64,000 nt of DNA from Entoloma clypeatum (Eukaryota; Basidiomycota; Agaricomycetes; Agaricales; Entolomataceae): assembly GCA_963565915.1 (NCBI GenBank), contig OY751486.1:5084001-5148000 (forward strand), written 5' to 3'. Every line of letters starts with the position of its first letter. Position 1 is the first letter of the stretch. The notes beneath the pieces are model-generated. The model saw only the letters and a list, made by a program, of their open reading frames with translations. It ran no database searches and was not told where the DNA came from. Position numbers and translations under genes: made by a program. This document shows positions 15,040-43,711 of this stretch, one piece after another.

Positions 15040-15766
15040 TGCACTCCTTCACCATGGAGGGCAATGACCTGTGTGAGTGTGCAAAGGGGATGTTGAACGT
15101 ACTACTACTTATCTATGATCCCCAGCACCGAGTGAGTACAATGAAGGAAAAGGCATATCTGTTGCCCTCGAGCTTGAGGCGCTTCCACCACCAGCAAAAG
15201 AAGGCCAGCCGAAACGTCAAAAATGCTAAACCTCTCAAGGTTACTGGGAAGATGTTCGTGCATGAAGAAGAGAGCTTACATGAGATGTTACGGAGGGCTG
15301 CTACTATACTCAAGCGAGATGATGTGCAGGAGTACGGACCTCGATGAATTTGATTACTTCTGTTATGAACTTCTCTACGACATCCCAAGGTCACCATGGA
15401 AGGGAATCACCATCAACAGCTTGAGCGACTACAAGCAAATGATTGAGGAAGTAGTAAAGAAGGCGAGTCCATTGGTGAAAATCATCTTCATGGAACATTC
15501 CAATCTGAGATGGGTGTGTCATGTACTTCCTTTACCATTTCCTATCACTTACAGCAACATAAACCAGTGGAGCAGGGATGATGAAGATCAAGATAGCAAT
15601 GAAGAGGAACCAGAGGCCGAAAATCTGCGCAAGAAGACCAAGGTCAGTTTCAATGTCTTATATGTCTTATATGTCTTCTACTTTGTCATTCCACCACAGA
15701 AAACACATGAGCTGTCACCCGAGGAAGTTGAGCAATCAGCTCTGATCAGCTCGCTTCAGACTAAGT
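15040..15766 (+). pseudogene. 5' half of a basidiomycete repeat-family gene split by the giant transposon
   Basis: This fragment resembles the N-terminal half of a large family of uncharacterised Agaricomycete proteins: a ubiquitin-like segment (KMFVHEEESLHEMLRRAA, then DLDEFDYFCYELLYD and IIFMEHSNLRW), an acidic linker flanked by introns, and a helix (ELSPEEVEQSALISSLQTK) that in relatives runs straight into a C-x4-C motif. Here the coding sequence stops being gene-like after 15766. The missing C-x4-C part is found in the right frame at 43712. A frame change near 15330 suggests an indel or unrecognised intron, so the gene may already have been decaying. Function unknown. Confidence 0.7.
15759..15766 (+). 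repeat. Left 8 bp target-site duplication of the giant element
   Basis: GACTAAGT, identical to 43704-43711. Removing the interval plus one copy leaves the host reading frame intact across the junction. Confidence 0.85.
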
Positions 15767-15889
15767 CAGGGCATCCAGTGGAAAGTTTCTGTGATAACAT
15801 AAGCGCGGACGTGAGATTTAAGCTGTGATGACAGGCCAGCGGAGTCAGCCCACGAACAGGTAACACTTAATCTGACAGCTGGGCTGATG
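15767..15889 (+). repeat. Left terminal inverted repeat of the giant element
   Basis: Compared with the reverse complement of 43587-43703, matching blocks appear in the same order and spacing: GCGGA near 15803, GTGATGACAGGCCAGCGGA at about 15824-15842, AGTCAGCCCA, and ACAGCTGGGCTGATG at 15875-15889, which is exact. The outermost 20 bp do not visibly match. Confidence 0.7.
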
Positions 15890-16939
15890 TGTCGGCATAA
15901 TATTACTTTCGGCTTATTGGGGTGCTCGGGTCGTGGGTACAGGTACAGCTGGGTATGGGTATGGGGATGGGTATGCATTTCGGGACCCCCAATAACCACG
16001 TTGGAGTGTTAGACGGGTTTTGTGAAGTATGTTCTGGCTGCCTCCAGAGGTCCATAGATGCCAACCACATTTATACCCATGGGAGCCTGTAAACCTGTCC
16101 ATGGCTGCAGGTACAGGTCGACCCAAAGGTATCCGAGGGTTACCTGTGGCATTCACTGACACTGGGATAGGTATAGGCACTAGGGCTGCTACTAGCAGCT
16201 CATAATTTATGAGGGATGAACACAGCAGGAAATTAGATTGAAGAGTCTACAAAGGAGTCTACAAAGGAACCAAGGATGAAGAAGAGCTCCAGTGTGAAGG
16301 AGAATTTTGTGGGATGAGGGTTGGTGGGCATGGACAATCTCCCAGCTCGCAAGGGGAGTATTTCCGTCCCGTCGGGGCCGGCTTTGTCTTGGAGGCTGCA
16401 CCCTATCTGCATCCTGTGAGCTGACTGTCTGGACATGCATGCCAAGGTCTGCAAGACTCTATATTCCCATCACACGAAAAAGGTTTCCCATGCCTCGGAT
16501 ATGGCACAAGGTGATGTCAATGCAGCCCCGATGGGATAAATATACTTCCCTCAGTTTGTTTCGGTTGCCAATGCGTCGGAGCAACCTGAAAATCGGAACA
16601 CAATGGGGGAAACCGGGGCCGACGGGAGATATATTTCCCATTCTGGAACATTATCAACGTGCGGAGAGGAGAGGATAAGGGATAACATTGTGAGGATGAG
16701 GCCCATTTGCGGGTCAGTCTGGAAGTCATTTTTATTCAAGGGCATATAGAAACAAGGGGTGAAATGAAAAAAGCGCGATATTGTACATGATGAGAGTAAA
16801 GAAGTATGAGGTCAACTACGGTCCAAGCTTTGAACACAGGAGAAATGATTCTGTGGCCTGTCGAGACCGGGTATTTCTCCGAATGCAGCTTGTCGCTTAG
16901 GCTAATTTCTCTGTATTCTCTGACATCTTGAGTGAATGA

Positions 16940-17392
16940 TCAAGATACTACAGTCGCAAAGAACATACCTGCAAGGGCCTGGCACATAATTTTGACCTCT
17001 GCCACCATATCCCTGAACCTTTGCGCCCCAACATCTTCCAGCAAATCATGATCCCATCGATCAGCAGGCGCCGCATCGGTCACAAGGCCCGGATGACTTG
17101 CAATAAAAGGAGGAGTGAGATTGTTGTTCGCTTTCGTATACTCAAACACAGAAAAGCGTGTACCCATTGCACTGATGCCATACAGTTTGGGAATCATGAG
17201 ATCGTGTTCAGCAATAATCAGGACCCGCTCGCGCATCTGTAAGTCTGCGCTGACCCGTTTATGGATGTGGTCAAGGTGGGGAAAAGGCTTGATTTCGAGA
17301 AAAAACACTGGGAACTCCCGCAGTTGAACGAGGAGACATGGATTGGGAAATGGAACATGGTTTGGGAACAGAGTCACTAAATCATGAGGCAC
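16940..17392 (-). CDS. Hypothetical protein, small cargo gene or gene fragment
   Basis: A 150-codon minus-strand frame with normal protein composition (DLQMRERVLIIAEHDL, KLYGISAMGTRFSVFEYTK, DRWDHDLLEDVGAQRFRDMV). It resembles a segment of uncharacterised Agaricomycete proteins (Met-Arg-Glu-Arg, then Leu-Tyr-Gly-Ile-Ser...Gly-Thr), but I cannot name a domain. Upstream exons are likely missing or not recognisable, so this may be a captured fragment. It lies just inside the left end of the giant element. Confidence 0.45.
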   Translation of the reverse strand: MPHDLVTLFPNHVPFPNPCLLVQLREFPVFFLEIKPFPHLDHIHKRVSADLQMRERVLIIAEHDLMIPKLYGISAMGTRFSVFEYTKANNNLTPPFIASHPGLVTDAAPADRWDHDLLEDVGAQRFRDMVAEVKIMCQALAGMFFATVVS

Positions 17393-18964
17393 ACTAGGGG
17401 GGATTTTTGTGTGAACGACTTATCGGAAAGACTTGGACCTGGGGCCGACGGGGGACATATTTCCCGTCGGGGGTTCGGGAACATATCATCGACCGGGATC
17501 GGGGAATGCACTCTGTATCTTGTTCCGTAACGACTTATGGGAAAGACTTGTGGCAGTCAAGCTATAGGTGTAGCGGACATAGGACCTAACTGGGTTTGGG
17601 GGCCTGTGCGCCTGTCAAGTTGAACTTGACACATACAAAGGCAACACCACCAAACAGCACCATGTCGCGTCCTCGCGCGTCGAGGTTTTACTCCTACCAA
17701 GGTTCGTGTTTTTTTCTTTTTTACTGCATCATTATACTCTATTCTTGTATTATGTTTCTCCTGACTTCACCGTTGAGTTTTCCGGTGATCACATGGGTCA
17801 CACTGGGTCAAATTTTGAATACCATACCCATACGTGAAAAAACAATGTTGAATACTGTACGGCAGGCCTGGAATACATATATGTATTTTTATACTGATTC
17901 CAATGACAAACATTGATATATACAAGCACCCTGCCTCGAGTGTCGGGGATGCGGACTTGATAGAAGTTGAACCGTGGCAGGGATGCCTCTCGTGTTTTGG
18001 ATGATTGAAATATACATATATTAGAGTATTCTCGCCGAATGAATAGTCTGGGTGATTCCTGGATTAGCAGGTAGGTCCTGATCTCATCAAAGCTCCAAAT
18101 GCACCACAGAATCATTTATTGTGGCACATCCAGTGCATGGATCACTGTTGTCTCTTTTGCCCCTTGTTCACTACATATAAGAGTAGACTTCCACCGAAGG
18201 GATAAGGTGGGAGATGCTTGGATGAGTAAATAGGTTGTCCATACTCTTCTCCTGCCTCCTCGATTTAATTTATTTGATTTAATTTAATTTCCTGGCCATA
18301 TACACATATAGCACCACATAGCCAAGACTTGGACCTGGGGCCGATGGGGGAAGGATTTGCCGTCGGGACTTCGGGAACACATCCTGGACGGGGATCGGGG
18401 ATGCATTGTGTATCTTCGGGAACATCAGAATGTGGCCGGGGCCGACGGCGGATATGTTTCCCATGGAAGGAAACAAGTGCGGGACATGGGTTGTTTCCGC
18501 GGAAACATAAGTATTTGATATTTGGGTCCCCCTGAGCCTGCCTCATAGTTTACAGAGTCTGTTGCCAAACCATGTTCCATTTCCCAACCCATGTCCTATG
18601 ACCTGCTGGGGCATTGCATCTTCATGTTGCAAAATGCTTGGCTGACGCATGCCTTCCAATATGCTGAAACAAGATGCAGTCAGACATTGGTGAAGGAACA
18701 ATTGCTGAAAGCTATGAACAAATTTTGGGCCATGAATGGACTAGTCACTTCCCAACCTGTCCTAAGATTGGGTCACAAAGCTGGGAGAGACCAAGGAACA
18801 TGTCAGAAGCATGGGATAATGGGGGTGGAATTTGGGCAATGGTCGGATCTCAACCCTCGGCCCCGACGGGATGGGGTGTGATGACGGATTTTATTCAGAG
18901 GGAGCATATGCAGACCAATGGGAAAATTTGGGGAAATAAATCGATTTTTAGTATAGGTTCAAAA
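17393..18964. other. Non-coding part of the giant element with motif copies
   Basis: Holds at least five copies of the GGGGCCGACGGG motif, two of them with a nearby inverted CCCGTCGGG. Small open frames here show no domain. Confidence 0.5.
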
Positions 18965-20487
18965 CTATGTACTAACAGATGGAGCAAGCACGCGGTTGAC
19001 AGTACTTGCCCCTCCGGGGTTGATTTGGAGGTAACTCCTAATGTCATCCCTCATGAACCATGCAAAACAAGCTCGGTCACCAGCTTGAATGGGATCGACG
19101 GCATGAGAAAGGATCCGCCCAGACAGTGCTATAACTGTGCGGGGGCCATATGAAAATGAGGTATGGAGACCGGGAAGATGGAGCGAAATTTGTTCATATA
19201 AGCCTGTAGTGGCTAAGATGTCATACCACTCATGTCGGGCTTGTGAATCTTTATGGCAGGGAGTCTGGCGATTGCAAATGATGGAAACACCCGAGAATGG
19301 AGTACACCAAGTCTCGAGGACCTTCGAGATGTGAGCTGGTTCCCAGAGATGAGAAGGATCGTCCTTGAGCCGTTCGAGCATAGTGAGGCCGACTAGGTAC
19401 TGCTCTGGATGTGTGACGGCCAAGATGGAACCCATGGCTGAAAGGAAGCGGCTGTTGGCTTTGAGCCAGGAGGTGGCACAGGATGACTCTGTCTTGTATG
19501 ATTTCGAGATTTCTGGCCGCCCGGTGCTTGCCTGTAATAAGAAATGAGTTGACATTGACCAAAAGAAGGGGGAGGAAGGAAACAAACAGAATGGCCTGCT
19601 TGGAACCAGCAGGAAGCGATGTCAACAATCCCTGGAACTAGGACTTCACCTGAGGTGAACAGGGTGGGATCATGACTCCAGGGAGCGCGACGATTTGAGG
19701 CATTGCTGTCCTCACTACCCGGGCGGGAAGAACGGGTGGGTGGGGCCCGATGACCGGTTTCAACATGGATCGGGTAGTTTTTCCGTTCCTCTCGCATAAG
19801 AGAATCCAGAACTGAAATTGAGGCAAGCCATTCATCCTTGAAAAAGGGATGAGATCCAGGAAGCATGAATGTTAATGGGGCACGTACATGCACATCTTGT
19901 GAGAGGGCATCCGGTAAATACCAGAGGATGATATTTCCATCGGCGTCAAGGACTGTCATGGGGGTATTGACCTGAATGAAATCATCATCGTCGGACTGGA
20001 AGTCGGGGCCGGGAGGGAAAAGGAGATTGCGGGAGGTTTCTTGGGCCTCATCTCGGCCGTCACAGGCTTTTCCCAAGGTAGCGACATAGTCCGCCACCCT
20101 CCATGGGACCCGTTCTGAATGGGAAAAGGAGTGAGAATCAGCATGGTGTAATACAATAAGTCAGTCACTTTGATTCCTGAGGGCGATTGCTGCGATCTCG
20201 GCAATATGCTGACCATCCTCGATGCTCGCATATGAGACATTGAGGGGCAGTGGGAGGTCAGGAAGTAGGGTGGGATCCGCCTCATGGTAGTGATGCTGGA
20301 AGAGATCATGGGTGTGCTTTGCAGCATGATATGCTTGATAAAATCGGGGGGAGAAGTCCTGATGGAGGGTGGATGGGTCCGCTCTGACTATTTCCCGAGC
20401 AGCAGGAAAGATTGTAAGGAGGCGTGGGTCCACCACATCAAGCTCATCAGGGATGGGGGTTTGGGGACCACTGTCTTCGGCAAGCAT
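18965..20487 (-). CDS. TET/JBP-family 2-oxoglutarate/Fe(II) dioxygenase
   Basis: Four minus-strand exons: 20487-20169, 20114-19894, 19836-19588 and 19531-18965; 451 aa, no internal stop. The catalytic core matches basidiomycete TET/JBP proteins: VLDADGNIILWYLPDAL upstream, then CNRQTPCHKD with the metal-binding H356-x-D358, GLYEQISLHLPGL, SYGPRTVIALSGRILSHAV with the third metal ligand H406, and GDRACFAWFMRD with the 2-oxoglutarate-binding R416. Such enzymes oxidise 5-methylcytosine or thymine in DNA. All key residues are present, so activity is plausible. The start is uncertain: an in-frame codon run continues upstream of 20487, and an ATG at 20592 could begin a short first exon through a weak GTCCTC donor. 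Its place in a KDZ element fits the known co-mobility of the two families. Confidence 0.88.
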
Positions 20488-20592
20488 TTCCAGAACAACT
20501 GTTGCATCCTGTAGGTTTTGTCAATAGTCAAAGGCAATGGAGAGGGTCTGCTGCTGTTCGAGGACATTCATGGATGCCCAGTTGTCCCTCAT

Positions 20593-21379
20593 TGCTCTCT
20601 CGACAAATCAGAGGAATCGACTTTGATTAGGGGAAAATATGACATTGCGAGCCAGCAACATCAAGACCATAGCCGTCCCCATCATATACAGGCTTTCGAT
20701 TTTCAGGTTCATGGTGATTGGATCAGCATGGCGACAAGACGTGATCTCATGATGGATTCCGATCGGGACGTGTCCGGGGCCGACGGGGGGATACGTTTCG
20801 CATCGGGAATGAGGGCGGTCATGTCGGCGACCAAAGTCGGGATATGAGTTCTCGGCGAAGTGAAGGAAATATTAATGGGATGTGTCTGGGGCCGACGGGG
20901 GATATATGTTATCTGGAAAATGCACTCCCTGCGATATGGAATGAAAGTACTCAACACTTTGTTCCCAGTGGATGCACGACCTTATGGAAACAATTGGGCT
21001 GGCAGGGGAGGCTCAGTCCCCTATGGCTCAGGCTTTCAAAGCAGTTTGTTTATTGGTATATATGGAGGCGAAGTTATACCAATAAAAAGATGAATATGCG
21101 TAGTAAAAACAGGGGGAAAAGCAATATCGGACGGCAAGATCAATCGAGTCAGGAAGACAGCGAGGGAGGAGGAGCGGGAGAGAGGATGATAGGACCCACT
21201 TTCTTCATGCCCTTCATGCTGTACAAAGTACCTGTCTTGAGACCTTGACCATCCCCTGCGAGTCACACGACAGTGGGCTGGGCTTCCACATCACCCACAT
21301 GCGAGGCAGTCACGACGTCCTCCGCGACAGTGGGCAGCGGAGAATTTCTGCTGCATCTGTCAGACTTCTTGCGAAGGAG
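20593..21379. other. Spacer with motif copies
   Basis: Contains two copies of GGGGCCGACGGGGG (20777 and 20889) and no supported gene. Confidence 0.5.
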
Positions 21380-23660
21380 TCACGCGTTGCGCTTGTGGAT
21401 CACCCGATAGTCGGGGGTCGTCTTCCGCTGATGAAGTTTGGCCAGCTGGTTCGCGACCTCAGGCTCATCTGCTCTCTCAATTTCTCGAGGTGTTTCGCGC
21501 TGTATACCTGATGCATCTGCGCTGTGGGATAGGCCTGGCATGGGTAGGGCCACTGGGGCCACAGCTGCAGGAGCCTCTGGACTTGGTGCAGGAGCTGATG
21601 AGCGAACGGGGTCATTCGAGACAACTGGCGGTGCGGGCGATCCAAGGGAGGGATTGTCGACATGCGGCGCTGCTGATGACGTTTCCCCAGGATCATTTGG
21701 GGGTGACCCCATGACCACGTCGACGTTGGTTGCGATATTGAGCTCAGCCGAGGCAGAAAGTGGGGTCGGGGACTTGGGGCCGACGGGCAGAGTTTGGAGG
21801 ATCGTTGCTGCCGGCGTCCCACCTCTAGGAGGAGGGCCCAAATCGGAAGGGGACCCTCCATCTTGACTGCCAAAGCCCACGCAAGGCAATCTTGGAGACA
21901 TGCCGATGTCGGTCGGAAGCTTCGGCAAGACGGCGGGCCCGACGGTCTGGCTTGGTCCAGTCAGAGATGACGCCGACGCCCCTCCCAGGCTACCAGTTGG
22001 CGATCTGGAGACGATCGTAATGTCGGTCGCCATATTCACCGGCGCCGCCGGGGAGCGCGATCTTGACGCGGCGGGAAATGCTTGGGTGGCAGCTTGGGGG
22101 ATAATGGGAGTTGGAGGGGTCCTTGCATTTTCAGGCTCCATAGAATCTGTGCCTGAACCAGCTTCAACGTCACTGGGGAGGTTGACGTAGGCTTCCAGCA
22201 AGGGTGATGCAGGTGATGGTGGATGACCACCGGGAATTGTCGTCAACGGGGGGGTGGGAGTTGTGACAGCAGGACCAGCAAGTCGGGAAGCGATGAGCGC
22301 TGGAATGCCCATCACCACGTTGGTGACGAAGGCTGTCAGGGAAGGTGATGTGGGCAGAGGCCCAGCGTTCATACCAGATGTACCTGGGACCCCTGTGACA
22401 TTGCTTGGAGTTTTGAATACAGCTGATGTTGAAGGTGGGAGGAGGTTGGTAGCCAACGATGTGCCGTCAATCATCGGGACATCGGGGGATGGAGCCGCCA
22501 CTCGAGAGACAGTTGTTGTCTCCCGAGCCCCCTCGGGTGCCTGCCGTATTGTGTCCCAGACCTGAGCGATGACCCGTTTCATAGCCCTGTGTTCCCGATC
22601 TCTCTCCTCCTCTGACCAACGCTGTCTTGTCAGTTCCTCGAGCAATTCATGATGGGCCTGTTGAAGATTCCCAACTACCTTCTCCCTGTCTTGAAGACAG
22701 TTGTCCAGTTCACATACCGTCTTCTCCAATTCCGCAATCCTCTGGGTATTCATCTGCCGTGGACCGGGCTTGGCCGACACGCTCCGACGACGTTTCGGAG
22801 GGTCTGTCGGTTGTTTCCCATCATTGTTGTCATTGCCGCCAGTCCTTATGCTCTCCTGCCTGACAGAGCGCTTCCCTGAATCAAAATGTAAGCTGATGCC
22901 AGCTGTGATGAACGGCTGTACACACGAGGGTTTGGCTTGCTGCTGCTTGCTGCGCTCGATGCCCTTGACTTTCCACGACCCCCAACACTGCGACTCTGGG
23001 AGCGTCCATGTGGGTCGTTGATGGATTTCCAGTATTCCCGGACGGCGTCCTTGAGGTTGCATCGTTTGTGGGACGTGTGACAGTAATCGCATGCCCCCTG
23101 CCCGCCCTTCAAACATTCGATCTTCCGAGCCTTGATACAGTTTAAACATTTGGCATGAATGACGGTTGTGGGACTGGCGGAACGAGACTGATGCATTTCC
23201 TGGGCAGGAGAAAATCTGTACAGCTAGATGTCACATGATTCAAAGTGGGCCATACCTCATCGCTGTCCATGTCTTCCACTTTCTCCCTGTGGCCATCCTC
23301 CTCCTCATCCTCATCCATCGCATCAGGTTCCACATATGTCGCCTTGGCTTTCCCCTTTCCCGATGTAGGTCCATCTTTTGCAGAGCGTGAAAGCTTGGGC
23401 CGCTTTCGGTGATGATCCGAACCCTCGTCGGCTCCAGTCGTATTCGGGCCAATGATCGTAAGTTTCTGCTTGGTCTGAGATGGCCCGGCGACTGGGGGAG
23501 TCGGGGCGAGCTGGGGGTTGACCGTGACAGTCGCACGAAGGGGCTCTAGGGCCTTAATGTCATCCCATGGAATTGGTTGGTCGTGTCGTAGCGGTTCCTT
23601 CAATAAAGTCATGGCCTGTTTTAAATAATCGGACCGACGGGACCCCCGATTCTTTGACAA
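21380..23660 (-). CDS. Zn-cluster/coiled-coil protein of the KDZ element, long paralogue
   Basis: Exons 23660-23256, 23199-22926 and 22875-21380 on the minus strand; 724 aa, all joins in frame. The N-terminal block SDYLKQAMTLLKEPLRHDQP-IPWDDI is shared with the next gene. An acidic stretch follows, then a six-Cys cluster C-x2-C-x7-C-x7-C-x2-C-x6-C (CLNCIKARKIEC to CDYCHTSHKRC) resembling a fungal binuclear Zn2Cys6 domain. Next is a coiled coil (RIAELEKTVCELDNCLQDRE...ELLEELTRQRW) and a long Pro/Ser/Thr/Ala-rich tail. I expect a nuclear DNA-binding protein. Two GGGCCGACGGG-type motifs lie within the tail coding sequence. Confidence 0.72.
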
Positions 23661-24215
23661 CTCTTGATGTACTTTGTACTGTGTGTAGTAAAGTCACTAA
23701 CAGCTTGCGATCCAACAGAACCTGGAAGACGACATATGTTGAGCTTGCCCAAATCGTCTCTCACACATTGCTCAGGGTGACAAGCATAGAGGCTGATAAG
23801 GTCCTCGAAAGCATTGAGGAGTTGGGAGACATTGTTGTTGGAGGCCATGTGAGATGCGTGAAAAACACTGAGATGAGCAGGGACGAAGGTAAAAAGTTGC
23901 AGCAGAGAAGTCGCATCAGCAAGGGTCACGTGACACCTACCCTCGGTGGGCAGCGGAATGTTGAATGACGGGCCTGCCAGGCCCGACGGGATGGGGTTGT
24001 TCCCATCCCACGGGCTTTGTTCATCCTTTCGGCCGATCCCGACAAGGAAGGGAAAGGTCGGGAAAGCTGAGGTTGCTGCCGGGCCCGACGGGATGGCTTT
24101 GCTCCCATATCGGGGCCTCGGGACTGCAAGGTCGGGACTGGGATTCTGTCAGGAGGCAGAACGTCTCAGATTCCATTCCCAACAGATTCCCATAAACCTC
24201 AAGTCACAGATTCAC

Positions 24216-24295
24216 TAGAATGATAAATACCTACATACCATGTACTACTTTTATCTAGATTGACTAGAATGATAAATACCTACATACTATGTACT
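24216..24295. repeat. Short tandem duplication
   Basis: CTAGAATGATAAATACCTAC followed by ATAC and ATGTACT occurs twice about 47 bp apart. Confidence 0.7.
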
Positions 24296-25394
24296 GTTTG
24301 TATCCTCAGTAGGTGTTGCACGTTTTGCCAGCCCCAGTTCGGAATTCGACGACAGCTTCCGTTTCTTCAATATCCTGTTCATCGGTTGCTGACTGAGTTC
24401 TTCTCTCAGTGCAGTGACTTCTCTCATGAGCAGGCCGATTTGCATTTCGTGACTGTCCTTCATCTGCCGCATCTCTGCTCTGAGCAACCCGACATCCTCA
24501 CGGAGGCTTCCTAGTTCTGCCAGACCGGCATCCTGGTTCCGACGGATTCCCTTGATGTCATTTGCAATGCCTAGCATTTAATGGGGATCAGGTCTGAAAA
24601 CAGAAACCTGCATCAGCAGTCGGCGGTACTCACCTTCCTTCCACTCCGCCCCAATCAGCTCTGGGGCTGAGGAGCGAGCCTTGCCCTCTCTCCGAATGAC
24701 ATCCTGATTTTTCCTGGCCCTTCCTATTGCCCGGGCAACGGACGTGTGGCTACACCATTGCTGTTTCGTGTGGCAGGAAACACATGCCGACCAGGCGGGG
24801 TGCCGATCACAGAGAAGCCGATTCTCCCTGCATGCTGTACATGGCTCCATTATCAAAGCGTCCTGCTGGGGCCCTGGACTGGAGACAGGATTGGACGGAT
24901 GTGGGCGATGTTTCAAAACCCCCGGCTGAGGGGCCTGGCGGATGACCCGATACTGGCCTCTTGCGGTTGCTGCCTAACAGGGGGAACAGGAGTCAAGCAA
25001 GGGTTGGACAGGGAATGTATTGTAAACTCACTGGGGAACCTCTAATACTCCTCTCGTGATTGTCCTCCAACGCATCCCCACATTCTGCGCTTCTAACCGT
25101 TTCTTGCAGCCATTGCTGGGCGATCCCAAGCTGCTTGGCCAATTGAGGGGCTGAGTGGTCCTGCGAGGGGCATGCATGAGGATCGGGGGGGTCGGGAGTG
25201 CAGAAACTCTCGCGCTCAAGTGCTATGGCATCTGGAAGCACAGAACATGTTCCTCGGAGTGAGGCCTTCAGCAGAACGTCATCCCAGGAGATTGGTCGTC
25301 TATCCCGAATTGCTTCCCCAATGATCCGGCATGTGTGACGAATATACTGAGTCTTTGGAAACTGAGCACGGTTTGAGTCGAGAAGAAATTGATA
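24287..25394 (-). CDS. Zn-cluster/coiled-coil protein of the KDZ element, short paralogue
   Basis: Minus-strand exons 25394-25032 (5' end open), 24973-24634 and 24570-24287 join in frame (about 329 codons). The start, SNRAQFPKTQYIRHTCRIIG then RRPISWDDVLL, parallels the N-terminus of the neighbouring long paralogue. The Cys cluster is C-x2-C-x6-C-x8-C-x2-C-x6-C (CTACRENRLLC to CVSCHTKQQWC), the classic Zn2Cys6 spacing. A coiled coil follows (LGSLREDVGLLRAEMRQMK). The first exon is not found; the sequence enters at a good acceptor (TTTTCCCAG). Same strand and order as the long paralogue, so a tandem duplication inside the element is likely. Confidence 0.68.
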
Positions 25395-25816
25395 CTGGGA
25401 AAAGAGGTCAGCTTAGTCGGTATGCTAATAAAGCAAAACATACAACGCGCCGTTGGAGCATCCGCTCTGCCCCGCTGACCAGTTCCTGGGGCTTCTGTGC
25501 GAAATGGAATATTTCGATTTCAAGGCTCGTTTGTATGATGGTCAAGGCAGTGTGACCAAGGGTGTCCTCGTTTTCCATGTGATCGTTCCTCGAGGACGTC
25601 GCGTGGTGGAAGAAGCTGTTTCAACCTCCCTGGCAGGTCAACAGGCTGTGACGGCAGAGATGTGGCCTTTGAGATCACACATCAAGCGACCCTGTGATGA
25701 CGACTCCAGTCACAGGTTGTCATCATTGAATCCGACAGTTCATAGTGAAGGTGAGCCCAGGATTTCCCCTCAATTCAGAATTGACTTAAGTAACAAGCTT
25801 ATAGATCTCTCGAAGT
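25395..25816. other. Possible first exon region, otherwise unassigned
   Basis: Should hold the 5' end of the short Zn-cluster gene (minus) and the promoter of the Ser/Pro-rich gene (plus). I could not place a first exon with confidence. Confidence 0.35.
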
Positions 25817-26530
25817 ATGGCTGATGTTTCACCATCATACAACACACCCCTTCAATCCTTTCCCTTGCCTCCTCTGACACCTGAAGGCTCTGCTGAAACT
25901 GGACCTATGCTTCTGGATGACGATGCCCCAGCGTATTGGAAAACCTTCGACTCACCATCCCCGGCCTTCTCTTCCCCAGGAGACGCTGATTGGAAGGACT
26001 TCGGGTCGCCGATGTCCAGTCCGTCCGATGCCACCGGGGATGGAGATCTCAACTGGAAGGATTTCGGGTCAATTGCTCCTTCGCCGACATGTTCCGCTGC
26101 AAATTCCTCCCAGAGTTGCAGCCCGTCGGGCCCGGGACGCACAGAAATTGGGAGTACCAGTGATAGTCTGCGGGGAAGCCTGCTGTTCAGGTCAGATGGA
26201 TTGCCTGGAGTGACGGATACCCAACTTCCTGCCCTGGACATCCCAGGCCTCTCTCTTGGCACTCCGTCGAGCAGCAATGGATCAATGGGCCGAGGCAGCG
26301 ATACTTCACCAGACTCAGGGCAGCGGGATATCATCGATGTCACAGCATCTCCAGCTATGCCCCAGTTCCCCGTTTTTGACTTCCCAGAAGGACTGAGGCC
26401 CAGTCTCTCCCTGCCGATCCACGGCACCACTCTCGAATTGGCACACCTGCCAGCATTGCCAACAGGCTGCTGCACCAAGCCCTGCTGTGCGCCCCGGTGT
26501 TCCCAGGAACCCCCCGATCTAACCGATGAC
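25817..26530 (+). CDS. Ser/Pro/Asp-rich N-terminal segment, probably 5' part of the Ulp1 gene
   Basis: Open from an ATG at 25817. Low complexity, with two similar acidic-aromatic repeats (ADWKDFGSPMSSPS and LNWKDFGSIAPSP), a Cys-rich patch (GCCTKPCCAPRCS) and an acidic end (LTDDDE). No fold recognised. The Ulp1-like domain begins directly downstream in another frame, and relatives have such a disordered region before the protease, so I infer one gene. The joining intron is unresolved: candidates are either very short or out of phase. A CCGTCGGGCCCGG motif lies at 26126 within the coding sequence. Confidence 0.5.
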
Positions 26531-26549
26531 GATGAGGTTCTGGGGGCCA

Positions 26550-34000: not shown

Positions 34001-34670
34001 CAATTGGAGAGAAGTCCTTCAGGTTCCGAAATCAACTCCGGCATGCAAAAAGCAAGGTAAAGAAGACACGATCCTGGGATGCCATCCACACAGCCGACAA
34101 ACAGTTGCAACACCATCAGCTCGTCTACAGACAGGCTCGGTATGCCATGATTCAACTGGGAGGGGGCAAGGACATCCTCAATCGATACCTGGAGCTCAAA
34201 CCAGGAGATCTCCGCATGAATACTGCCGTACAGGAGCCCAATGCTCGGGGTCAAAGAAATCAGGAGCTGTCCTGGATTTGGAAAATGCCTGGACTGAACT
34301 TCACTGATGAACGGACTGTCCTTCATGAATGTGAGCTATTCTCGGTGAGGTACTCCTTCCCACTCAATTTCCTCCAGTATATAGGGTAAATTGGCTCAGG
34401 GCAAAGTCCCGGCGCGATCGCTGGCATGAAGAGCTGGTGATCACCAAACATGAAATGGTTTGGGTTGTCCTCTGGCTTCAACACCGTGCTCTGGAGTGGC
34501 AGAATCGAGCTATGGCACAAATTGGTTTCGCTTCATATGAGGGCCTGGCTGCTTATGCCTTTCGACAGGCTGGAAACTGGGAAAGATTGAAAATGGTGGC
34601 CCTGGGTTCATTCCAGAGGCTCAATCCAGATATCACAAAAGTATTTGGTTTTGAACATATTCATGTATAG
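31046..34670 (+). CDS. KDZ-superfamily transposase (one in-frame TGA)
   Basis: Eight exons fit a single frame: 31046-31324, 31382-32053, 32105-32449, 32497-32642, 32704-33104, 33157-33514, 33567-34330 and 34378-34670 (1,086 codons including stop). Cys cluster typical of KDZ: CDQC, HCEDC, LCRKCC and HSNLPFHRI. The RNase H-like core has VMDGNF (D388), YYDVICQY (D509) and GNILETLW (E574), the expected acidic triad, with ATACAQHGAFLPTGVVNFQL and NMDYSLCHG between. The C-terminus has the usual YRVNWLRAKSRRDRWHEEL helix. The only break is TGA at 31526-31528 (codon 142), within the Cys cluster between DCFG and NILCRK. This enzyme would cut out and reinsert the element; this copy would need readthrough or help from another copy. 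Confidence 0.88.
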
Positions 34671-35439
34671 AATGACTGTAAATGATTGTTTCCTGATCTG
34701 GATTGACGATATTTAGCCGTCCTGAAACCAAAGTCCACCATGTGCAAGATTTTTCCTGTTCTCCAACCAGGAGCGCGCAGCATTCATTTTCCCCGAGTTC
34801 TGGGAACTACAACACTGATGGTCCAGGGTGCTCATGATAAGACCTGGTTGTATCTACCCCGATTGCAAGGCGGCTCCGACGGCGGTGATGTTGCCCCCCC
34901 GTCGGGCCCGGCAAGCTCCCGCATGCCACGAACACCTCCCAAAGTCATGATGGCCTTCCCTGAACCCTTGTGTAGTTATCAGGTGACAAGTGCCCTGTGA
35001 TGATCTACATGAAATGACCAGGGGCACAAGAGCTTGATTGAGGATCACCCAAAGAGGCTCTTTATGCATGTTGTTGAGGTTCATTCAACTTCATTGCCCC
35101 CAGCAGGGTGTTCACTCCATTGCCCTGCCCTGTACATGCATGCTGATTTAACCTCTGACAGGTATGGGTTTGGTTCGATGAATACCCATCGTAACCCGAC
35201 CCTGACAGCGGCAGTGTTGCCACCCCGTCGGGGCCGGGGGGCACTCGCATCGCTGCCAAACACAATATGACCATATACTATCTAGTTACTACTTGATATG
35301 TGGCACTGTTGGATGTATGCTTGGTGTGGAATTAGATACAACGAAAACTAGGTTATATAACCCCAGTTCTGCGATAGCAAACTCAGCTGCAATGTTGTAC
35401 CGAACATTAAATACTACAACTCGCGACTACATAAATTTG

Positions 35440-35960
35440 TAGGCAAGGGCCATAGATAGCAACCATTATGAATGTAGATCATATTAGACAAAAGATTGTG
35501 GCCTTTCGCTATGTAAAACGGCGCATGAATATGAATGTAGAATAAAAATACTCACTATTGTCAGGCATCAAACTTGCGACTGCAACAGGTCGAGTATGGA
35601 AATCCATCCCGATGGTAACCAGATCCCGAGCACAGCGGCGTTGCCAACCCGTCAGGCCCCAGACGCTCCCACATCCCTGTTATCAATATTGCCGTGTTGA
35701 ATTCCGATGTCCCCCCAGTTGTTTGGAAGGTTCTGATCGTCTTTATTTCCCCCCGTCAGGCCCGTGTCGGAGCACCAAACACATCCCGAACTAAGCATTC
35801 CCATCTCTGAAGCACTGGTGTGAACATATTTACGTTCGGAAAACTTTCATGTTATTCCTGGTATGAGATGACCGGAAGCATGAGAACATGATCGAGGGTG
35901 AGGTCAAGAGGCATCCATGTTGTGAGGGTTCATTGTCTCCATCAAGGTGTTCACTCCGGC
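35440..35960 (+). repeat. Dispersed repeat, copy 1
   Basis: Shares, in order, CATATTAGACAAAAGATTGT, TTGTCAGGCATCAAACTTGC, ATCCCTGTTATCAATATTGC and TTCATTGTCTCCATCAAGGT with 39060-39580. Contains two motif copies (35651 and 35754). Confidence 0.8.
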
Positions 35961-36054
35961 CGTCTTGATGTCCGACGTCCCCCACTTTTTGGTATAGTTC
36001 CGGTCGCCGTTATTTCTCCCCGTCGGGCCCGTGTCGGAGTCCCCAACATGTCCT

Positions 36055-36893
36055 TTATACTGTCACCTACCTACATAGGTACCTACTCTTATACATAGTA
36101 TAATATACTATAACCAATTTCCAACCAATCCCCTGAGGTATAGGTGATTAATATGGCTAAGAAAGCGGTCAGAGACAGAGGAGCAAGGAGGAGCACATAC
36201 CTCTCCTTGAGATACTGGCATCCCCAGCCAACGTGTTACATGTAGGTTGGTTATAATGTATATATGTGTGTGGGGACAGGTACATAGACACCCCAGCATG
36301 GGTAGAACATTGTGAAAAGAGTGAAGATGTCTGTACTTACCTTGGCTGCAGATCATCATCTTGATCTCTCAACATGGTGAGGGCACCTATTTAGGCCCCT
36401 TCAATAGTATAAATAGGCCTCCAAGCATTGGTAGCACAAGGTATGCAATCACTAGATTAGGTAGAAAAGTGTATAGAATGAGATGTACATCAAAAACACA
36501 TATTCCTCGGTTACCATTAGTCTCTTATGGTAGAAAAATATATAGAGGGCTACAGAGAGTGTCATGGATGTATATATACACACTGAAAAAGACCCCAAAG
36601 GAATCCAAGCAGTGTGGAAGGTGGGAGACATGATTCAGTACCGAAAACACAACTAGAGAACAAGACTTATCATAAACATACCATCCTGAAGTGTATTTCA
36701 GACAAATTGTATCCTCTGCCTTCCACACTGCTTGGATTCCTTTGGGGTCTTTTTCAGTGTATATATATATATCCATGACACTCTCTGTAGCCCTCTATAT
36801 ATTTATTTACCATAAGATACTAATGCTAGCTGAGGAATATGTATTTTTGATGTACATCTCATTCTATACCCTTTTCTACCTAATCTAGATGGT
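36055..36893. repeat. Palindromic (foldback) unit, copy 1, right arm truncated
   Basis: Arms of about 170 bp around a loop near 36640-36700: CTAATCTAG and CTTTTTCAGTGTATATAT on one side mirror CTAGATTAGG and ATATACACACTGAAAAAG on the other. The outer left end is CCTTTATACTGTCACCTAC; its inverse is found at 41865-41885. Confidence 0.8.
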
Positions 36894-37080
36894 GGTGTTC
36901 TTCATGTATGTTTTATGTATGTAGAGATGTATTGCAGACTACATATACCCTCCCCTGGAGTATATACACTCATATAAGTGTACATCTAGATGTACTACGT
37001 TGGGGTCGAGGGGACGCCGCCGCCACCCCCTTGATTTACAGAGCAGAAAAATAATATATTACATCATCATTCGTTCACAA

Positions 37081-38331
37081 TGTTTCCCAGAGGAACATCG
37101 GCTCAGCGACCCTATGGTCCCCATATTATAGTTGCCCAGACTACAGTATGTAATGCGACTTGCAACTGTCATGGGTTCTTGGCCCATTCCTTTGTTCAAC
37201 TTCATAACTAGACCTCACTCAATGCGGTTTGCTAGGCCATAACAATTTGTTTCCTTCTGACCCCCGTGTTATGAACATTTATGCTGACGAGCAACTCCCC
37301 CCCTCGAAGTCTGGCAAAACAGCAGGCGACAATCCAATGACCTTAGCCTTACAGCTACAGCAGGTACATGGCCTCACCAAGAAAAAGGTGTATGCAGGCA
37401 AACCATTCCTTCGGGAACAACGGGTGAGCAAAGACTGCATTGCCGCTGGCATCGACTCTACACCGTAGCTGACTGGTGGGCGAGCCCCATCGAAGACCCG
37501 GACAAAATGTGCTCTCCCGTTGCCCGGGCTGGCAGCCTGACAGAGTCATATGGTCGTCGACCTAGGATGACCCGAAGAGGCTCTCGTTTATCATCCCCCG
37601 AAGCGGCTGTTTCCAATTTGCCAACGTCCTATCACACATTTTCGAGCATGTCCAATGTATTTCCTACTTCTCCAACAAACCCATACCCACCTGCATGCAT
37701 GCCACTGCAGCCAAAGGAGCCCTCATGGACTCCAGTGCAATGCCCCTCTGTCATTCTCTCATCCTCTGAGTCACTGGGATACCGGAGCAACCAGCAGACA
37801 ACATGTGGAGATCCGACCTACTCTCTCTTGGGAGTGACAACACCGTCAAATGACAGGACAATTCAGCTGTCCCTTCCCAGCATGCCTTCTCGCTCTGAAC
37901 CCAAATCAAATACTCAAATTCCTGGGGAAGGGGAAGTGGCTACCTCCTCCCGCCCAGTGACCCTTGCTGAGCACGAGGAACCTTTCGGGTTTGACAAGGG
38001 TTACGTAGCGGCGACAGCAGCTCTGTTCAACAAAGACGTCCTTCCGGTGTACCCGAACTTCAGTCTGTCCTGGGACGAGACTGCACTCCGCTCGCCTTGC
38101 CGCCAAATAACCACTCATCGAGAGGCCTTTTACATTGTCCAGGATCATTCAGTAGCACCAAGCCCTGTGCCAGTGTACGACTATGAGCCCTATTTTGGTG
38201 TGTCCTATGAACATTCCTTCTATCCTGCCATCCCTCCCGTTGTCGATTCTCCTGGCCTCCGATATGCTCCGTCGTATCCTTTGAGCAGCAAATCCTCGAC
38301 CACATCTTCACTAACAGGGTGGGCGGGTTAG
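37081..38331 (+). CDS. Hypothetical element protein, possibly the HMG-type cargo
   Basis: An ATG at 37081 opens a short exon (to about 37146, donor GTATGT), then coding-like sequence from about 37235, and a clear frame from 37507 to the stop at 38329-38331. The tail is Ser/Pro/Tyr-rich with a basic patch (GRRPRMTRRGSRLSS), like the region that follows divergent HMG boxes in proteins carried by KDZ elements. The segment just before it (WHRLYTVADWWASPIEDPD) could be the end of such a box, but reaching it needs an unplaced splice. No firm domain call. Confidence 0.45.
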
Positions 38332-39059
38332 GAGCCTTCTCTCTCCTTCAGCACTCAGCCTCCCTTCTGCCTATCATCTCCATCTAACTACTCCATCACG
38401 ATGCTTTTCAAATGTCTCTGTGGAGTTTCATATATTTGTATTGTCGCCTGTTCTCACATTTTCCTGCCTTCCATTTTGAGTTTCAATATGTTCGGGACTT
38501 TTATTAAGGAGATGCAACCTTGTACGCCACATTGTTGTCTCCAAATGCAAATCATCTGCAACCGACCCTTTTCCCGGTCGTCATACACCTACGGGAGTCT
38601 GGCAGGTACTTCGCAGTCAACATTGTGTCGAGTTCTTCAGTAAATGCAGATGAAAGGCCATATCACCCACCACTTCACAGTCAAAGCACCTGCCATGCAT
38701 CAAGTCAATTCGAAAGAGAGAAGGCAGAAGAAGCAACCCAGAAAATATTCCCATCATCGATAAGGGGCACACTCCGGTACATCTTTTGAGCCTGTCTGCA
38801 TGCGCCACTATAAGTGGCTGGTCTACATCAGCTGTTGACACAAAATAAGTAAGGGAGCACACCATAGTATTCATCTCGACGATGTTCTTCCACATGGGCA
38901 ACCATCCAACCTATCACAGGTATGAGTCGTCAATGTGATGAAACGGAGCAAGCACCCCTCACCTCCTCAATCTGCCACCATGCTCCTCACCATCCCTGGC
39001 ACCCTCTAGGGCGCCGGCAAAATCAAGAACGCCCAGTCAGTGCAGGAGGTGTCCCAGAC
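38332..39059. other. No gene recognised
   Basis: Open frames of 80-94 codons on both strands without domains or splice support. Confidence 0.35.
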
Positions 39060-39600
39060 AGAGTACCCTGTCTTGAATGTAAATCATATTAGACAAAAGA
39101 TTGTCGCCTATTGCTACATAAAATGCCCCATACATGAACATGAATGCAGAATTAAAATACTTGCTATTGTCAGGCATCAAACTTGCAACTACAATGGGTC
39201 GAGTATAGAAATGCATCCCGATAGCAAGCAGATCCCGACCACAGCGGCGTTGCCAATCGGGCCCGGGACGCTCCCAGATCCCTGTTATCAATATTGCCAT
39301 TTTTGGCCATGTTGAATTCCGACGTCTGCCCAGGTGTTTGTATCGTTCCGCTCGCCTTTATTTCCCCCCGTCGGGCCCATGTCGGAGCCCCGAACACGTC
39401 CCGAACTAATCATTCCCATCTCTGAAGTCCTGATGTCAACGTATTTACGATTGGAAAACTTCCATGTTATTCTTTGTATGAAATGACTGGAAGCATTCGA
39501 GCATGATCGAGGATGAGGCGCAGAGGCCCTCCATGCACGCCGCGAGGGTTCATTGTCTCCATCAAGGTGTTCACTCTATTACTCTGGCTTTTACACACCT
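39060..39600 (+). repeat. Dispersed repeat, copy 2
   Basis: Direct copy of 35440-35960 at roughly 85 percent by eye, with motif copies at 39257 and 39366. Confidence 0.8.
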
Positions 39601-39627
39601 GATAAACCCACATATCCCCCAATAGGT

Positions 39628-40470
39628 CTCCAAGTGTTGGTAGTACCAGGTGTGCAATGGCTGGATTAGGTAGAAGAGGGTATAGAATGATACATACATC
39701 AAAAATACATATTCCTCAGCTAGCATTAGTATCTCATGGTAGATACATATATAGAGGGCTACAGAGAGTGTCATGGATGTATATATACACACTGAAAAAG
39801 ACCCCAAAGGAATCCAAGCAGTGTGGAAGGTGGGAGACATGATTCAGTACCGGAAACACAACTAGAGAACAAGACTTATCATAGACATACCATCCTGAAG
39901 TGCATTTCAGACAAACTGTATCCTCTGCCTTCCACACTGCTTGGATTCCTTTGGGGTCTTTTTCAGTGTATATATATACATCCATGACACTCTCTGTAGC
40001 CCTCTATATATTTATCTGCCATAAGATACTAATGCTAACCGAGGAATATGTGCTTTTCATGTACGTCTCATTCTATACACTTTTCTACCTAATCTAGCCA
40101 TTGCATACCTTGTGCTACCAACGCTTGGAGACCTATTTATACTATTGAATAGGCCTAAATAGGTGCCCTCACCATGTTGAGAGGTAAAGATGATGATCTG
40201 CACCCAAGGTAAGTACATACATCTTCACTGTTTTCACCTTGTTCTACCCATGCTGGGGTGTCTATGTACCTGTCCCCACACACATATACTCTATAACCAA
40301 CCTACATGTAACACCTTGGCTGGGGAGGCCAGTATCTCAAGAAGAGGTATGTGCTCCTGCTCACTCCTCCGTTCCTGACTGCTTTTTTAGCCATATTGAT
40401 CACCTATACCTCAGGGATTGGTTGGAAATTGGTCATAGTATATCATACTATGTATAAGAGTAGGTATCTA
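39628..40470. repeat. Palindromic unit, copy 2, left arm truncated
   Basis: Same inner palindrome as copy 1, with a complete right arm that ends at the assembly gap in GTATAAGAGTAGGTATCTA. The left arm begins only at GGTCTCCAAG. Confidence 0.8.
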
Positions 40471-40670
40471 NNNNNNNNNNNNNNNNNNNNNNNNNNNNNN
40501 NNNNNNNNNNNNNNNNNNNNNNNNNNNNNNNNNNNNNNNNNNNNNNNNNNNNNNNNNNNNNNNNNNNNNNNNNNNNNNNNNNNNNNNNNNNNNNNNNNNN
40601 NNNNNNNNNNNNNNNNNNNNNNNNNNNNNNNNNNNNNNNNNNNNNNNNNNNNNNNNNNNNNNNNNNNNNN
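40471..40670. other. Assembly gap (200 N)
   Basis: Exactly 200 undetermined bases between two palindromic units; the flanks are inverted copies of each other. The round size suggests a placeholder. Confidence 0.99.
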
Positions 40671-41885
40671 ACATAGATTCCTACTCTTATACATAGTATA
40701 GTATACTATGACCAATTTCCGACCAACCCCCTGAGGTATAGGTGATTAACATGGCCGACAAAGCGGTCAGGGACGGAGTAGTGAGGAGGAGCACATACCT
40801 CTTCTTGAGATACTGGCCTCCCCAGCCAAGGTGTTACATGTACATTGGTTATAGAGTATATATGTGTGGGGACAGGTACATAGACACCCCAGCATGGGTA
40901 GAACAAGGTGAAAACAGTGAAGATGTATGTACTTACCTTGGGTGCAGATCATCATCTTTACCTCTCAACATGGTGAGGGCACCTATTTAGGCCTATTCAA
41001 TAGTATAAATAGGTCTCCAAGCGTTGGTAGCACAAGGTATGCAATCACTAGATTAGGTAGAAAAGTGTATAGAATGAGATGTACATCAAAAACACATATT
41101 CCTCGGTTAGCATTAGTATCTTACGGCAGATAAATATATAGAGGGCTACAGAGAGTGTCATGGATGTATATATACACACTGAAAAAGACCCCAAAGGAAT
41201 CCAAGCAGTGTGGAAGGTGGAAGACATGATTCAGTACCGAAAACACAACTAGAGAACAAGACTTATCATAAACATACCATCCTGAAGTGTATTTCAGACA
41301 AATTGTATCCTCTGCCTTCCACACTGCTTGGATTCCTTTGGGGTCTTTTTCAGTGTATATATATATATCCATGACACTCTCTGTAGCCCTCTATATATTT
41401 ATCTACCATAAGATACTAATGCTAGCTGAGGAATATGTATTTTTGATGTACATCTCATTCTATACACTTTTCTACCTAATCTAACCATTCCATACCTTGT
41501 ACTACCAACACTTGGAGACCTATTTATACTATACAATAGGCCTAAATAGGTGCCCTGACCATATTGAGGGGTCAAGATGATGATCTGCACCCAAGGTAAG
41601 TACATACATCTTCACTCTTTTCCCCTTGTTCTGCCCATGCTGAGATGCCTATGTACCTTTCCCCACACACATATATATACTTTATAATCAACCTATGCAT
41701 AACACATTGGCTGGGGAGGCCAGTATCTCAAGAAGAGATATGCGCTCCTCCTCACTCCTCTGTTCCTGACCGCTTTTTTAGCCATATTAATCACCTATAC
41801 CTCAGGGGGTTGGTCGGAAATTGGTAATAGTATATTATACTATGTATAAGAGTAGGTATCTAGGTATCTAGGTGACAGTATAAAG
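40671..41885. repeat. Palindromic unit, copy 3, near complete (about 1.2 kb)
   Basis: Both arms are present: the left begins with CCTACTCTTATACATAGTAT, the right ends with GTATAAGAGTAGGTATC then GGTGACAGTATAAAGG. The single-strand form would fold on itself over almost its whole length. It has no coding capacity; small frames within it are mirror images of one another. Confidence 0.85.
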
Positions 41886-42289
41886 GTGTAGATGACGGGA
41901 TGGTGGTGTTGTTGATGTTATATATATGTAGACATGTATTACAGACTATGTATGCCCTCCCCTGGTGTATATACACTCATATAATAGTGGTAGAAGAAGC
42001 CCGAGACATAGAAAAACAGCGGAGATTGAGGGAAGGTGGCAGGGTGGGGCGGGCATGGGAGTCTACTCAGACATTGTTCAGCATTGTCGGGACTCGATCT
42101 GAGGCTTTGGGAGATGGTGGGAATGGGACCTGAACACTGTCGATGGAAGCCCCCTTGATTGATGGTGCAGAATGTGCCAAGGATCTCTACAAGACATGCT
42201 TCAAGTCCCTGGGATTTATTCAACAATCAAGTAAACTAGCCTATCTAACACTAACAGTTCTTGTTAGAGGTGCATCAGGACCCCTGATG

Positions 42290-42940
42290 CACCTCTAAAT
42301 AAGGGGGATATGTGGGTTTATCAGGTGTGTAAAAGCCAGAGTAATAGAGTGAACATCTTGATGGACATAATGAACCCTCACAACATGCATGGAGGGGCTC
42401 TTGGCCTGATGCTCGATCATGCTCTCATGCTTCTGGTCATTTCATACAAAGAAACAACACTTCAAAGATGGGAATGATTAGTTCAGAACATGTTCGGGAC
42501 TCCGACATGGGCCCGACGGGGGAAAATAAAGACAACTGGAAAAGCAGGGGGACATCACTCCAAAGATGGGAATGATTAGTTCGGGACATGTTCGGGACTC
42601 CGACACGGGCCCGACGGGGGAAAATAAAGGTGACTGGAAAAGCAGGGGGATGTCGGAAATCAAGATGGGCAAAAATAGCAATATTTATAACAGCGATCTG
42701 GGAGTGTCCCGCACCCGACGGGTTGGCAACACTGCTGTGGTTGGGATCTGGTTACTATCGGGATGGATTTTGATACTCGACCCAATGCAGCTGCAAGTTC
42801 AATGCCCGACGCTACCAAGTATTTTAATTCTACATTCATATTCATGTATGGGGCATTTTACATAGCGAAAGGCCACAATCTTTTGTCTAATCTGATCTAC
42901 ATTCATGATGGTTGCTATATTGCTGGTGAGACGACAACTA
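42290..42940 (-). repeat. Dispersed repeat, copy 3 (inverted)
   Basis: Reverse complement of copies 1 and 2. Includes a tandem duplication of about 97 bp (42454-42550 and 42551-42650), each holding CGGGACTCCGACA and GGGCCCGACGGGGG. Confidence 0.8.
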
Positions 42941-43036
42941 CAGAGGTGACATGTGTTCTTGGTGGCCTTTCAACTTCATCCTATATTTCGTCCGTGTCCA
43001 AATTCTTATAGAAACTGACATATGGTTCCCTCCATA

Positions 43037-43117
43037 TAGGTCCAGGGGAATCAGGTAAATCTTCCATCGTCTAGCAAATGAAAATCATCCACCAGGGTGG
43101 CTTCAACAAGCCATGAG
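43037..43117 (+). pseudogene. Fragment of a heterotrimeric G-protein alpha-subunit gene
   Basis: One frame reads GPGESGKSSIV, a stop (TAG), then QMKIIHQGGFNK. This is the P-loop and following helix of a Galpha protein, where the family has GAGESGKS and KQMKIIHQ. It is preceded by a splice-acceptor-like CCATATAG, so an intron-exon border was copied too. Nothing else of the gene is seen. The TAG replaces the conserved Lys. It lies just inside the right end of the giant element. Confidence 0.75.
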
Positions 43118-43586
43118 ACTTCCCTCCGATCTCCTCTCCCAGGGGCAACACAATTGCCTTCCACATAACAAAACCTCAAGGATTTCTTTGTCATGTTTCC
43201 TCTGCCCAGCATATGAGACCCGTTCCCGCCTCCGACCCTCACCCGGCCCCGACGGGATGAAATTATTCCCCTCCGGAGCAAGACTCGCCATCAACTCCTC
43301 TCTCCATTTTTCCTCTGCATGAAGCATTCCTTTCTTCTAGACAAAGTTCTTATCTGTCCCCGTTTTGCAAACCCATGTATCCCCCATTTACAATATCAGC
43401 AAGGAAGACAATGTCTCCCTCAATCCAGGTTCCCGCACTCAAATGGCCACTGTGAACAAAGGTATCATTCTTTGGATAGCATTCAAAAGCCATACATAAG
43501 GCTATTGCCATTTCACCCTTATAACATCAGAGCATATTGACTTAATGTCTCATCAGCCCAGCTATTGTTTACAATGTTCACCCACT

Positions 43587-43703
43587 CATCAGCCCAGCTG
43601 TAAGTTATAGACATCATGCTGGGCTCAGTCCGCTGTCACTGTTATCACATGTTATTTTCCACATCCGCTATTCTGTTGTTTATAGGTATATACTATAACA
43701 TGT
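43587..43703 (-). repeat. Right terminal inverted repeat of the giant element
   Basis: Inverted relative to 15767-15889; CATCAGCCCAGCTGT at 43587-43601 is the exact complement of the left inner end. A second CATCAGCCCAGCT lies at 43551-43563. Confidence 0.7.
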
Positions 43704-43711
43704 GACTAAGT
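43704..43711 (+). repeat. Right 8 bp target-site duplication
   Basis: GACTAAGT, same as 15759-15766. Confidence 0.85.

What the first reader, a model, noticed from the sequence alone, without database searches (positions are those of the whole stretch)
15759..43711. A 27.9 kb KDZ transposon caught with its target-site duplication, splitting a gene in frame
GACTAAGT occurs at 15759-15766 and 43704-43711. The gene fragment before it and the fragment after it are on the same strand, in the same frame and belong to the same family; deleting the interval and one copy of the 8 bp gives an uninterrupted helix-to-Cys-motif join, as in relatives. Imperfect inverted repeats of about 120 bp mark both ends. 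This defines the whole element, which is rarely possible for fungal KDZ elements: length, cargo list, duplication length and target. An 8 bp duplication agrees with what I recall for Zisupton.
Basis: partly seen in the sequence, partly recalled or inferred. Interest (0 to 1): 0.95.

Follow-up and report, generated by a model that had tools for sequence, protein, structure and literature searches.

The report
Giant mushroom transposon carrying TET gene
A jumping gene about 28,000 bases long, of a known fungal kind that carries a gene for an enzyme acting on DNA methyl marks, sits inside another gene with a clean 7-base footprint on each side.

Summary
The core holds: one KDZ DNA transposon, window 15767-43704 (27,938 bp including a 200-N gap), interrupts an open reading frame. 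Three details change. (1) The duplication is 7 bp (ACTAAGT), not 8: all 14 right ends read finish ...CATGTG, so the G belongs to the element. Of 252 left-flank x right-flank comparisons, exact 7-mers occur only in 3 of 5 same-contig pairs (27.9, 28.8, 33.0 kb) and in 0 of 247 others. (2) 7-bp duplications, CA..TG ends and no TIRs are what Kojima 2025 reports for TET+ Kyakuja; the Dileera family it describes has 8 bp. The '120-bp TIR' is an imperfect subterminal inverted repeat of ~105 bp starting ~27 bp inside. (3) The element carries a TET/JBP gene related to CcTet; 9 of 11 TET/JBP matches found in the genome lie antisense within 20 kb downstream of a copy of this left end. The window transposase has an in-frame stop, so this copy is probably not autonomous. 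No empty allele and no relative of the target gene was found. Verdict: a well-bounded new member of a known kind (TET+ Kyakuja); useful, not very surprising.

The parts
15767..43704 (+). Kyakuja-type KDZ transposon, CA...TG ends, 27,938 bp including the N gap
   Evidence: ends shared by 18 left-end and 14 right-end copies
15760..15766 (+). left copy of the 7-bp target-site duplication, ACTAAGT
43705..43711 (+). right copy of the 7-bp target-site duplication, ACTAAGT
15796..15904 (+). left arm of the imperfect subterminal inverted repeat
   Evidence: local alignment, 0 of 300 shuffles as high
43573..43677 (-). right arm of the imperfect subterminal inverted repeat
18968..19621 (-). TET/JBP dioxygenase frame with the catalytic domain (domain match 19049-19471)
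   Evidence: PF12851 E 9.9e-18; CcTet E about 1e-19; genome coordinates
19666..20160 (-). probable upstream coding part of the TET/JBP gene; exon borders not determined
   Evidence: no Pfam match; dN/dS 0.31 against copy B
21383..23230 (-). stop-to-stop frame of 616 codons, function unknown
   Evidence: dN/dS 0.53, with 4 codons that are stops and two insertions in copy B
26536..27417 (+). frame with a weak Ulp1-like (Peptidase_C48) match over 28 residues
   Evidence: PF02902 E 2.9e-4, 21.2 bits against a cut-off of 20.7; no PDB match
30869..34386 (+). KDZ transposase gene region: CxC2 at 31799-32029, KDZ at 32699-33082, several probable introns, in-frame TGA at 31526-31528; exon borders not settled
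   Evidence: PF18803 E 1.6e-21, PF18758 E 1.1e-22
40471..40670 (.). 200-N assembly gap near the centre of an inverted repeat with 496-bp arms
15178..15766 (+). 5' part of the interrupted open reading frame
43712..44154 (+). 3' part of the interrupted open reading frame

Best explanation
Window 15767-43704 is one insertion of a TET-carrying Kyakuja-type KDZ DNA transposon. A CxC2-KDZ transposase joined its CA...TG ends to a 7-bp staggered cut in a single-copy open reading frame, and repair made the ACTAAGT duplication. Shown here: the ends, the duplication in three bounded copies, the KDZ, CxC2 and TET domains, and a relative lack of amino-acid changes in transposase and TET between copies. Inferred: cut-and-paste movement (from the DDE transposon class); that the TET enzyme helps the element escape methylation silencing (proposed by Kojima 2025); and, because this copy's transposase frame has a stop, that it now depends on sister copies.
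For: 18 left and 14 right ends at the same bases, reversed-pattern controls 0. Exact 7-bp flank matches in 3 of 5 same-contig pairs and 0 of 247 other combinations. KDZ and CxC2 domains. TET/JBP domain closest to CcTet in the PDB. Copy B with the same gene blocks and its own duplication. dN/dS 0.22-0.31 for TET and transposase parts, off-frame controls 1.71 and 1.09. 7-bp duplication, CA..TG and no TIR match the published Kyakuja description (PMC12730594).
Against: Two of five same-contig pairs show no exact 7-bp match: the 3.7-kb C14 pair (an 8-mer with one mismatch, a level also reached by two non-pairs) and the 97.7-kb C13 pair. Ten of 18 left ends, at least, have no partner found. A 200-N gap lies inside. 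Copy C is bounded but has no TET match. In copy B two codons of the TET stretch compared and four of the 616-codon frame are stops, and there are small insertions. No transposase tree against reference Kyakuja, Dileera and Zisupton was possible. No empty site and no relative of the target was found.
Confidence: 0.88

Rival explanations
1. A Zisupton- or Dileera-type element with an 8-bp duplication GACTAAGT.
For: GACTAAGT is repeated exactly at both borders. The 3.7-kb C14 copy has flanking 8-mers with one mismatch. Dileera (Zisupton-1_PGr) makes 8-bp duplications (PMC12730594).
Against: 14 of 14 right ends have the terminal G, and in copies B and C the left flank has C and T at the eighth base, so the G match here is a 1-in-4 chance. 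No true TIR.
Confidence: 0.06
2. Not one insertion: two elements or an assembly join at the N gap, with the outer ends belonging together by chance.
For: A 200-N gap near the centre of a large inverted repeat; about 4.9 kb on the right (roughly 35,782-40,671) is absent from the matching stretch of copy B.
Against: Both ends belong to one family, with matching 7-bp flanks and an in-frame join; two further copies, 28.8 and 33.0 kb, have both ends with their own duplications. Nested or rearranged DNA inside would not move the outer borders.
Confidence: 0.04
3. A Starship-like giant element whose KDZ gene is only a passenger.
For: Large size and cargo only.
Against: The ends, duplications and transposase travel together in sister copies, and 7 bp with CA..TG matches Kyakuja. 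No tyrosine recombinase appeared among the 22 distinct element frames scanned with Pfam, but that is a part of the 184 frames of 70 or more codons listed for 15-45 kb, flanks included.
Confidence: 0.01

Closest known systems
TET+ Kyakuja transposons, e.g. Kyakuja-1_LB and Kyakuja-2_LB of Laccaria bicolor (Kojima 2025, PMC12730594, sections read; figures and supplement not seen)
   Same: KDZ transposase, 7-bp duplications, 5'-CA..TG-3' ends, no true TIRs, TET/JBP gene
   Different: Lengths and sequences of the published families were not visible to me, so identity with one of them is open. The Gly331-equivalent of TET is Ala here, where the paper reports Gly or Ser.
Cryptococcus neoformans KDZ1, KDZ2, KDZ3 (PMC12810828, passages)
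   Same: KDZ transposase, insertion into a gene with a short duplication
   Different: About 9-11 kb, TIRs of 139-241 bp, CxC1 instead of CxC2, 8-bp or 4-8-bp duplications; no TET mentioned in the passages seen
Giant KDZ elements of Ectocarpus (up to 30.3 kb) and Chlamydomonas (31.7 kb, active) (PMC12477816, passages)
   Same: About 30 kb, nested insertions, transposase often broken, movement in trans suggested there
   Different: Algal; no TET cargo mentioned in the passages seen

Membership tests
KDZ superfamily | KDZ transposase domain (PF18758) | tested here: met
   E 1.1e-22, 81.3 bits against cut-off 26.6
KDZ superfamily | associated CxC cysteine cluster upstream of the transposase core | tested here: met
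   CxC2 PF18803 E 1.6e-21
Kyakuja | 7-bp target-site duplication | tested here: met
   3 of 5 same-contig pairs exact, 0 of 247 others
Kyakuja | 5'-CA..TG-3' termini | tested here: met
   18 of 18 left and 14 of 14 right ends
Kyakuja | no TIRs | tested here: met
   the tips share only CA/TG; an imperfect inverted repeat begins about 27 bp inside
Kyakuja | AG-type TET/JBP dioxygenase: HxD, later His, Asp337 equivalent, Gly or Ser at the 331 equivalent (for TET+ families) | tested here: inconclusive
   HxD, His and Asp337 equivalents kept, 331 equivalent is Ala in the CcTet alignment (residue roles from PMC12730594)
Kyakuja | transposase groups with Kyakuja in a tree | not testable with these tools
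Zisupton / Dileera | 8-bp duplication | tested here: not met
   7 bp in window, B and C
Starship | tyrosine-recombinase captain | tested here: inconclusive
   none in the 22 distinct element frames scanned; the remaining frames were not scanned

The most novel reading that the evidence does not exclude
In this fungus one giant Kyakuja lineage is the vehicle of nearly the whole TET/JBP repertoire. TET lies antisense behind the left end and stays under selection while transposases break, so that TET-bearing copies act as silencing-escape modules moved in trans by sister copies.
Probability: 0.35. Interest if true: 0.55.

Novelty: new member of a known kind. Interest (0 to 1): 0.38.

Why it matters
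It gives base-exact ends, duplications and gene content for a giant TET-carrying Kyakuja family in one long-contig genome, with three bounded copies and many end fragments. That is a ready test bed for whether transposon-borne TET genes protect their own element from methylation, and a clean case of a roughly 28-kb element inside an open reading frame.

Tried and rejected
8-bp duplication: rejected, the G is part of the element in 14 of 14 right ends. Zisupton label: rejected on duplication length. True TIRs: rejected for the tips. Paralogue or empty site of the target in the same genome: the joined protein found only its own two halves and five weak matches to the C-terminal tail. Relatives of the target and of the 616-codon frame in the large protein database: none; I do not know how many fungi it holds, so this says little. 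PDB relatives of the Ulp1-like and 616-codon frames: none. The 3.7-kb C14 copy has both ends and mostly unrelated DNA between them, without an exact 7-bp duplication. I did not identify the species. Eleven TET matches is well below the 46 TET genes reported for Laccaria bicolor (PMC8889193, passage) and the 46 for Coprinopsis cinerea (PMC12730594, section read), but the scan gives lower bounds.

Papers. PMC12730594: abstract, sections 2.1, 3 (parts 1-2 of 3), 4 (part 1 of 2) and the figure-legend section read, plus passages; figures and supplement not seen. PMC12810828, PMC12510652, PMC8290104, PMC7641404, PMC12477816, PMC13066641 and PMC8889193: passages only. Iyer et al. 2014 is not held and is known to me through citations and recall.
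Full report
OBSERVATION. GACTAAGT lies at 15759-15766 and 43704-43711 and nowhere else on the + strand of the window; its reverse complement is absent. The window is contig C2:5084001-5148000 of a 60.08-Mb genome in 20 contigs. The stretch holds a KDZ transposase domain (PF18758, E 1.1e-22) with a CxC2 cysteine cluster upstream (PF18803, E 1.6e-21). It also holds a 200-N gap near the centre of an inverted repeat with 496-bp arms, so the true length is uncertain.

ENDS. A 24-base pattern from the left end matches 18 places including the window (13 exact, 5 with one mismatch; up to 3 allowed). A 22-base pattern from the right end matches 13 places (12 exact, 1 with three mismatches). The same patterns reversed match none. 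The window's own right end is not among the 13 because it lacks 3 bp there; with it there are 14 right ends. All 14 end CATGTG and all 18 left ends start CA. In the longer left-end search, 18 of 33 matches begin at base 1 and 15 are partial or truncated.

DUPLICATION. I compared the flank of each of 18 left ends with that of each of 14 right ends (252 comparisons). Five pairs lie on one contig and strand in the right order within 120 kb. An exact 7-base match occurs in three of the five (window ACTAAGT, 27,938 bp; copy B on C6, CCTTTCT, 28,767 bp; copy C on C14, CCACATA, 33,041 bp) and in none of the other 247. In B and C the eighth base of the left flank is C and T, not the G that an 8-bp duplication would need, so the G in the window is chance. 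The other two pairs are a 3,691-bp C14 copy, whose flanking 8-mers differ at one base (two non-pairs reach that level), and a 97.7-kb C13 pair without a match. Most other ends have no partner.

INVERTED REPEATS. The left end and the reverse complement of the right end align over about 105 bp (15796-15904 with 43573-43677; 0 of 300 mononucleotide shuffles as high for the outer 150, 300 and 400 bp), but the match starts about 27 bp inside. The outer 60 bp alone reach 22 of 300 and 5 of 300 under two scorings; the tips share only CA/TG.

RELATED COPIES. Copy B matches the window element in seven listed blocks, in order, at 82-92% identity up to window 34,911, with about 6.6 kb of its own between blocks. 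Copy D on C8 matches in four blocks at 91-98% (about 12.6 kb), with about 6.1 kb inserted and about 6.5 kb missing that B has; its right end was not found. Right of the transposase the copies share many inverted repeats, and about 4.9 kb of the window copy (roughly 35,782-40,671) is absent from the matching stretch of B (that list was cut off). The genome scan lists 118 KDZ matches, exon by exon, 116 over the cut-off. Of ten KDZ matches that I assigned to this family by neighbouring homology, three have both ends within 30 kb, one has a left end only, five a right end only and one neither.

CARGO. On the minus strand near the left end lies a TET/JBP gene: Tet_JBP E 9.9e-18. The only PDB matches are two CcTet sequences of Coprinopsis (E about 1e-19). 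In that alignment the HxD, the later His and the Asp337 equivalent are kept; the Gly331 equivalent is Ala. The genome scan found 11 Tet_JBP matches, 10 over the cut-off, and the window one is the best. Nine of the 11 lie 1.1-19.6 kb downstream of a copy of this left end, all nine antisense to it; two of the nine lie behind the same C15 left end, and one of those two is the match under the cut-off. A tenth (C8:3819020) lies in DNA similar to the element interior; one (C2:255418) is unassigned. Copy C has no TET match although it is bounded and has its duplication. Other frames: 616 codons of unknown function and a weak Ulp1-like match of 28 residues.

SELECTION AND STATE. Between window and copy B, dN/dS is 0.22 and 0.31 for two parts of TET, 0.30 for a KDZ stretch, 0.27 for the CxC2 stretch and 0.53 for the 616-codon frame. 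Frames shifted by one, tried for two of the five, give 1.71 (TET) and 1.09 (616). Against intactness, two codons of the TET stretch and four of the 616-codon frame are stops in B, with insertions of 1, 2, 27 and 30 bp in the compared stretches; B's TET domain match itself has no stop. The window transposase has an in-frame TGA at 31526, 191 open codons at CxC2 against 387 in B, 411 in D and 373 in a C1 copy; six other family copies show 90-274, one of them 191 as in the window. Introns also limit these lengths. I infer that the window copy is probably not autonomous.

TARGET. Fragments 15178-15766 and 43712-44154 join into one open frame of 344 codons. Both are single-copy in the genome apart from the C-terminal tail, so an origin from different paralogues is unlikely. 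No family or relative was found; 'as in relatives' remains untested and no empty site is available.

COMPARISON. Kojima 2025 (PMC12730594, section 3.2.1 read) reports 7-bp duplications, CA..TG termini and no TIRs for the TET+ families Kyakuja-1_LB and -2_LB, and 8 bp for a Dileera family. The end and duplication features tested here agree with Kyakuja; the 331-equivalent residue of TET does not fit the reported Gly or Ser, and no tree was possible. Giant KDZ elements of about 30 kb are in print for algae (PMC12477816, passages). This is a well-bounded member of a known kind with much within-genome support.

MECHANISM. Shown: ends, duplications, domains, conservation. Inferred from the DDE-transposon class: cut-and-paste with a 7-bp stagger. 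Proposed by Kojima and not tested here: the TET enzyme oxidises methylated bases and helps the element escape silencing.

Noticed in passing
window 44356-49933: A copia-type retrotransposon with near-identical direct repeats (44356-44665 and 49626-49933) begins about 200 bp past the end of the target frame.
   Followed up: partly
window 50910-53747 (-): Gypsy-type protease, reverse transcriptase, RNase H and integrase domains.
   Followed up: no
window 39921-41224: Large inverted repeat (496-bp arms, 96% complementary) with the 200-N gap near its centre; possible assembly trouble spot.
   Followed up: no
L084 (C14:1562256-1567000): A 3.7-kb copy with both element ends (89-90% identity) and mostly unrelated DNA between them: a possible non-autonomous relative.
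   Followed up: partly
G000 C2:255418-255900 (-): The one Tet_JBP match not tied to this family; the nearest KDZ match listed is about 25 kb away.
   Followed up: no
window 983-2689: A long open frame built of repeat units of about 360-408 bp.
   Followed up: no
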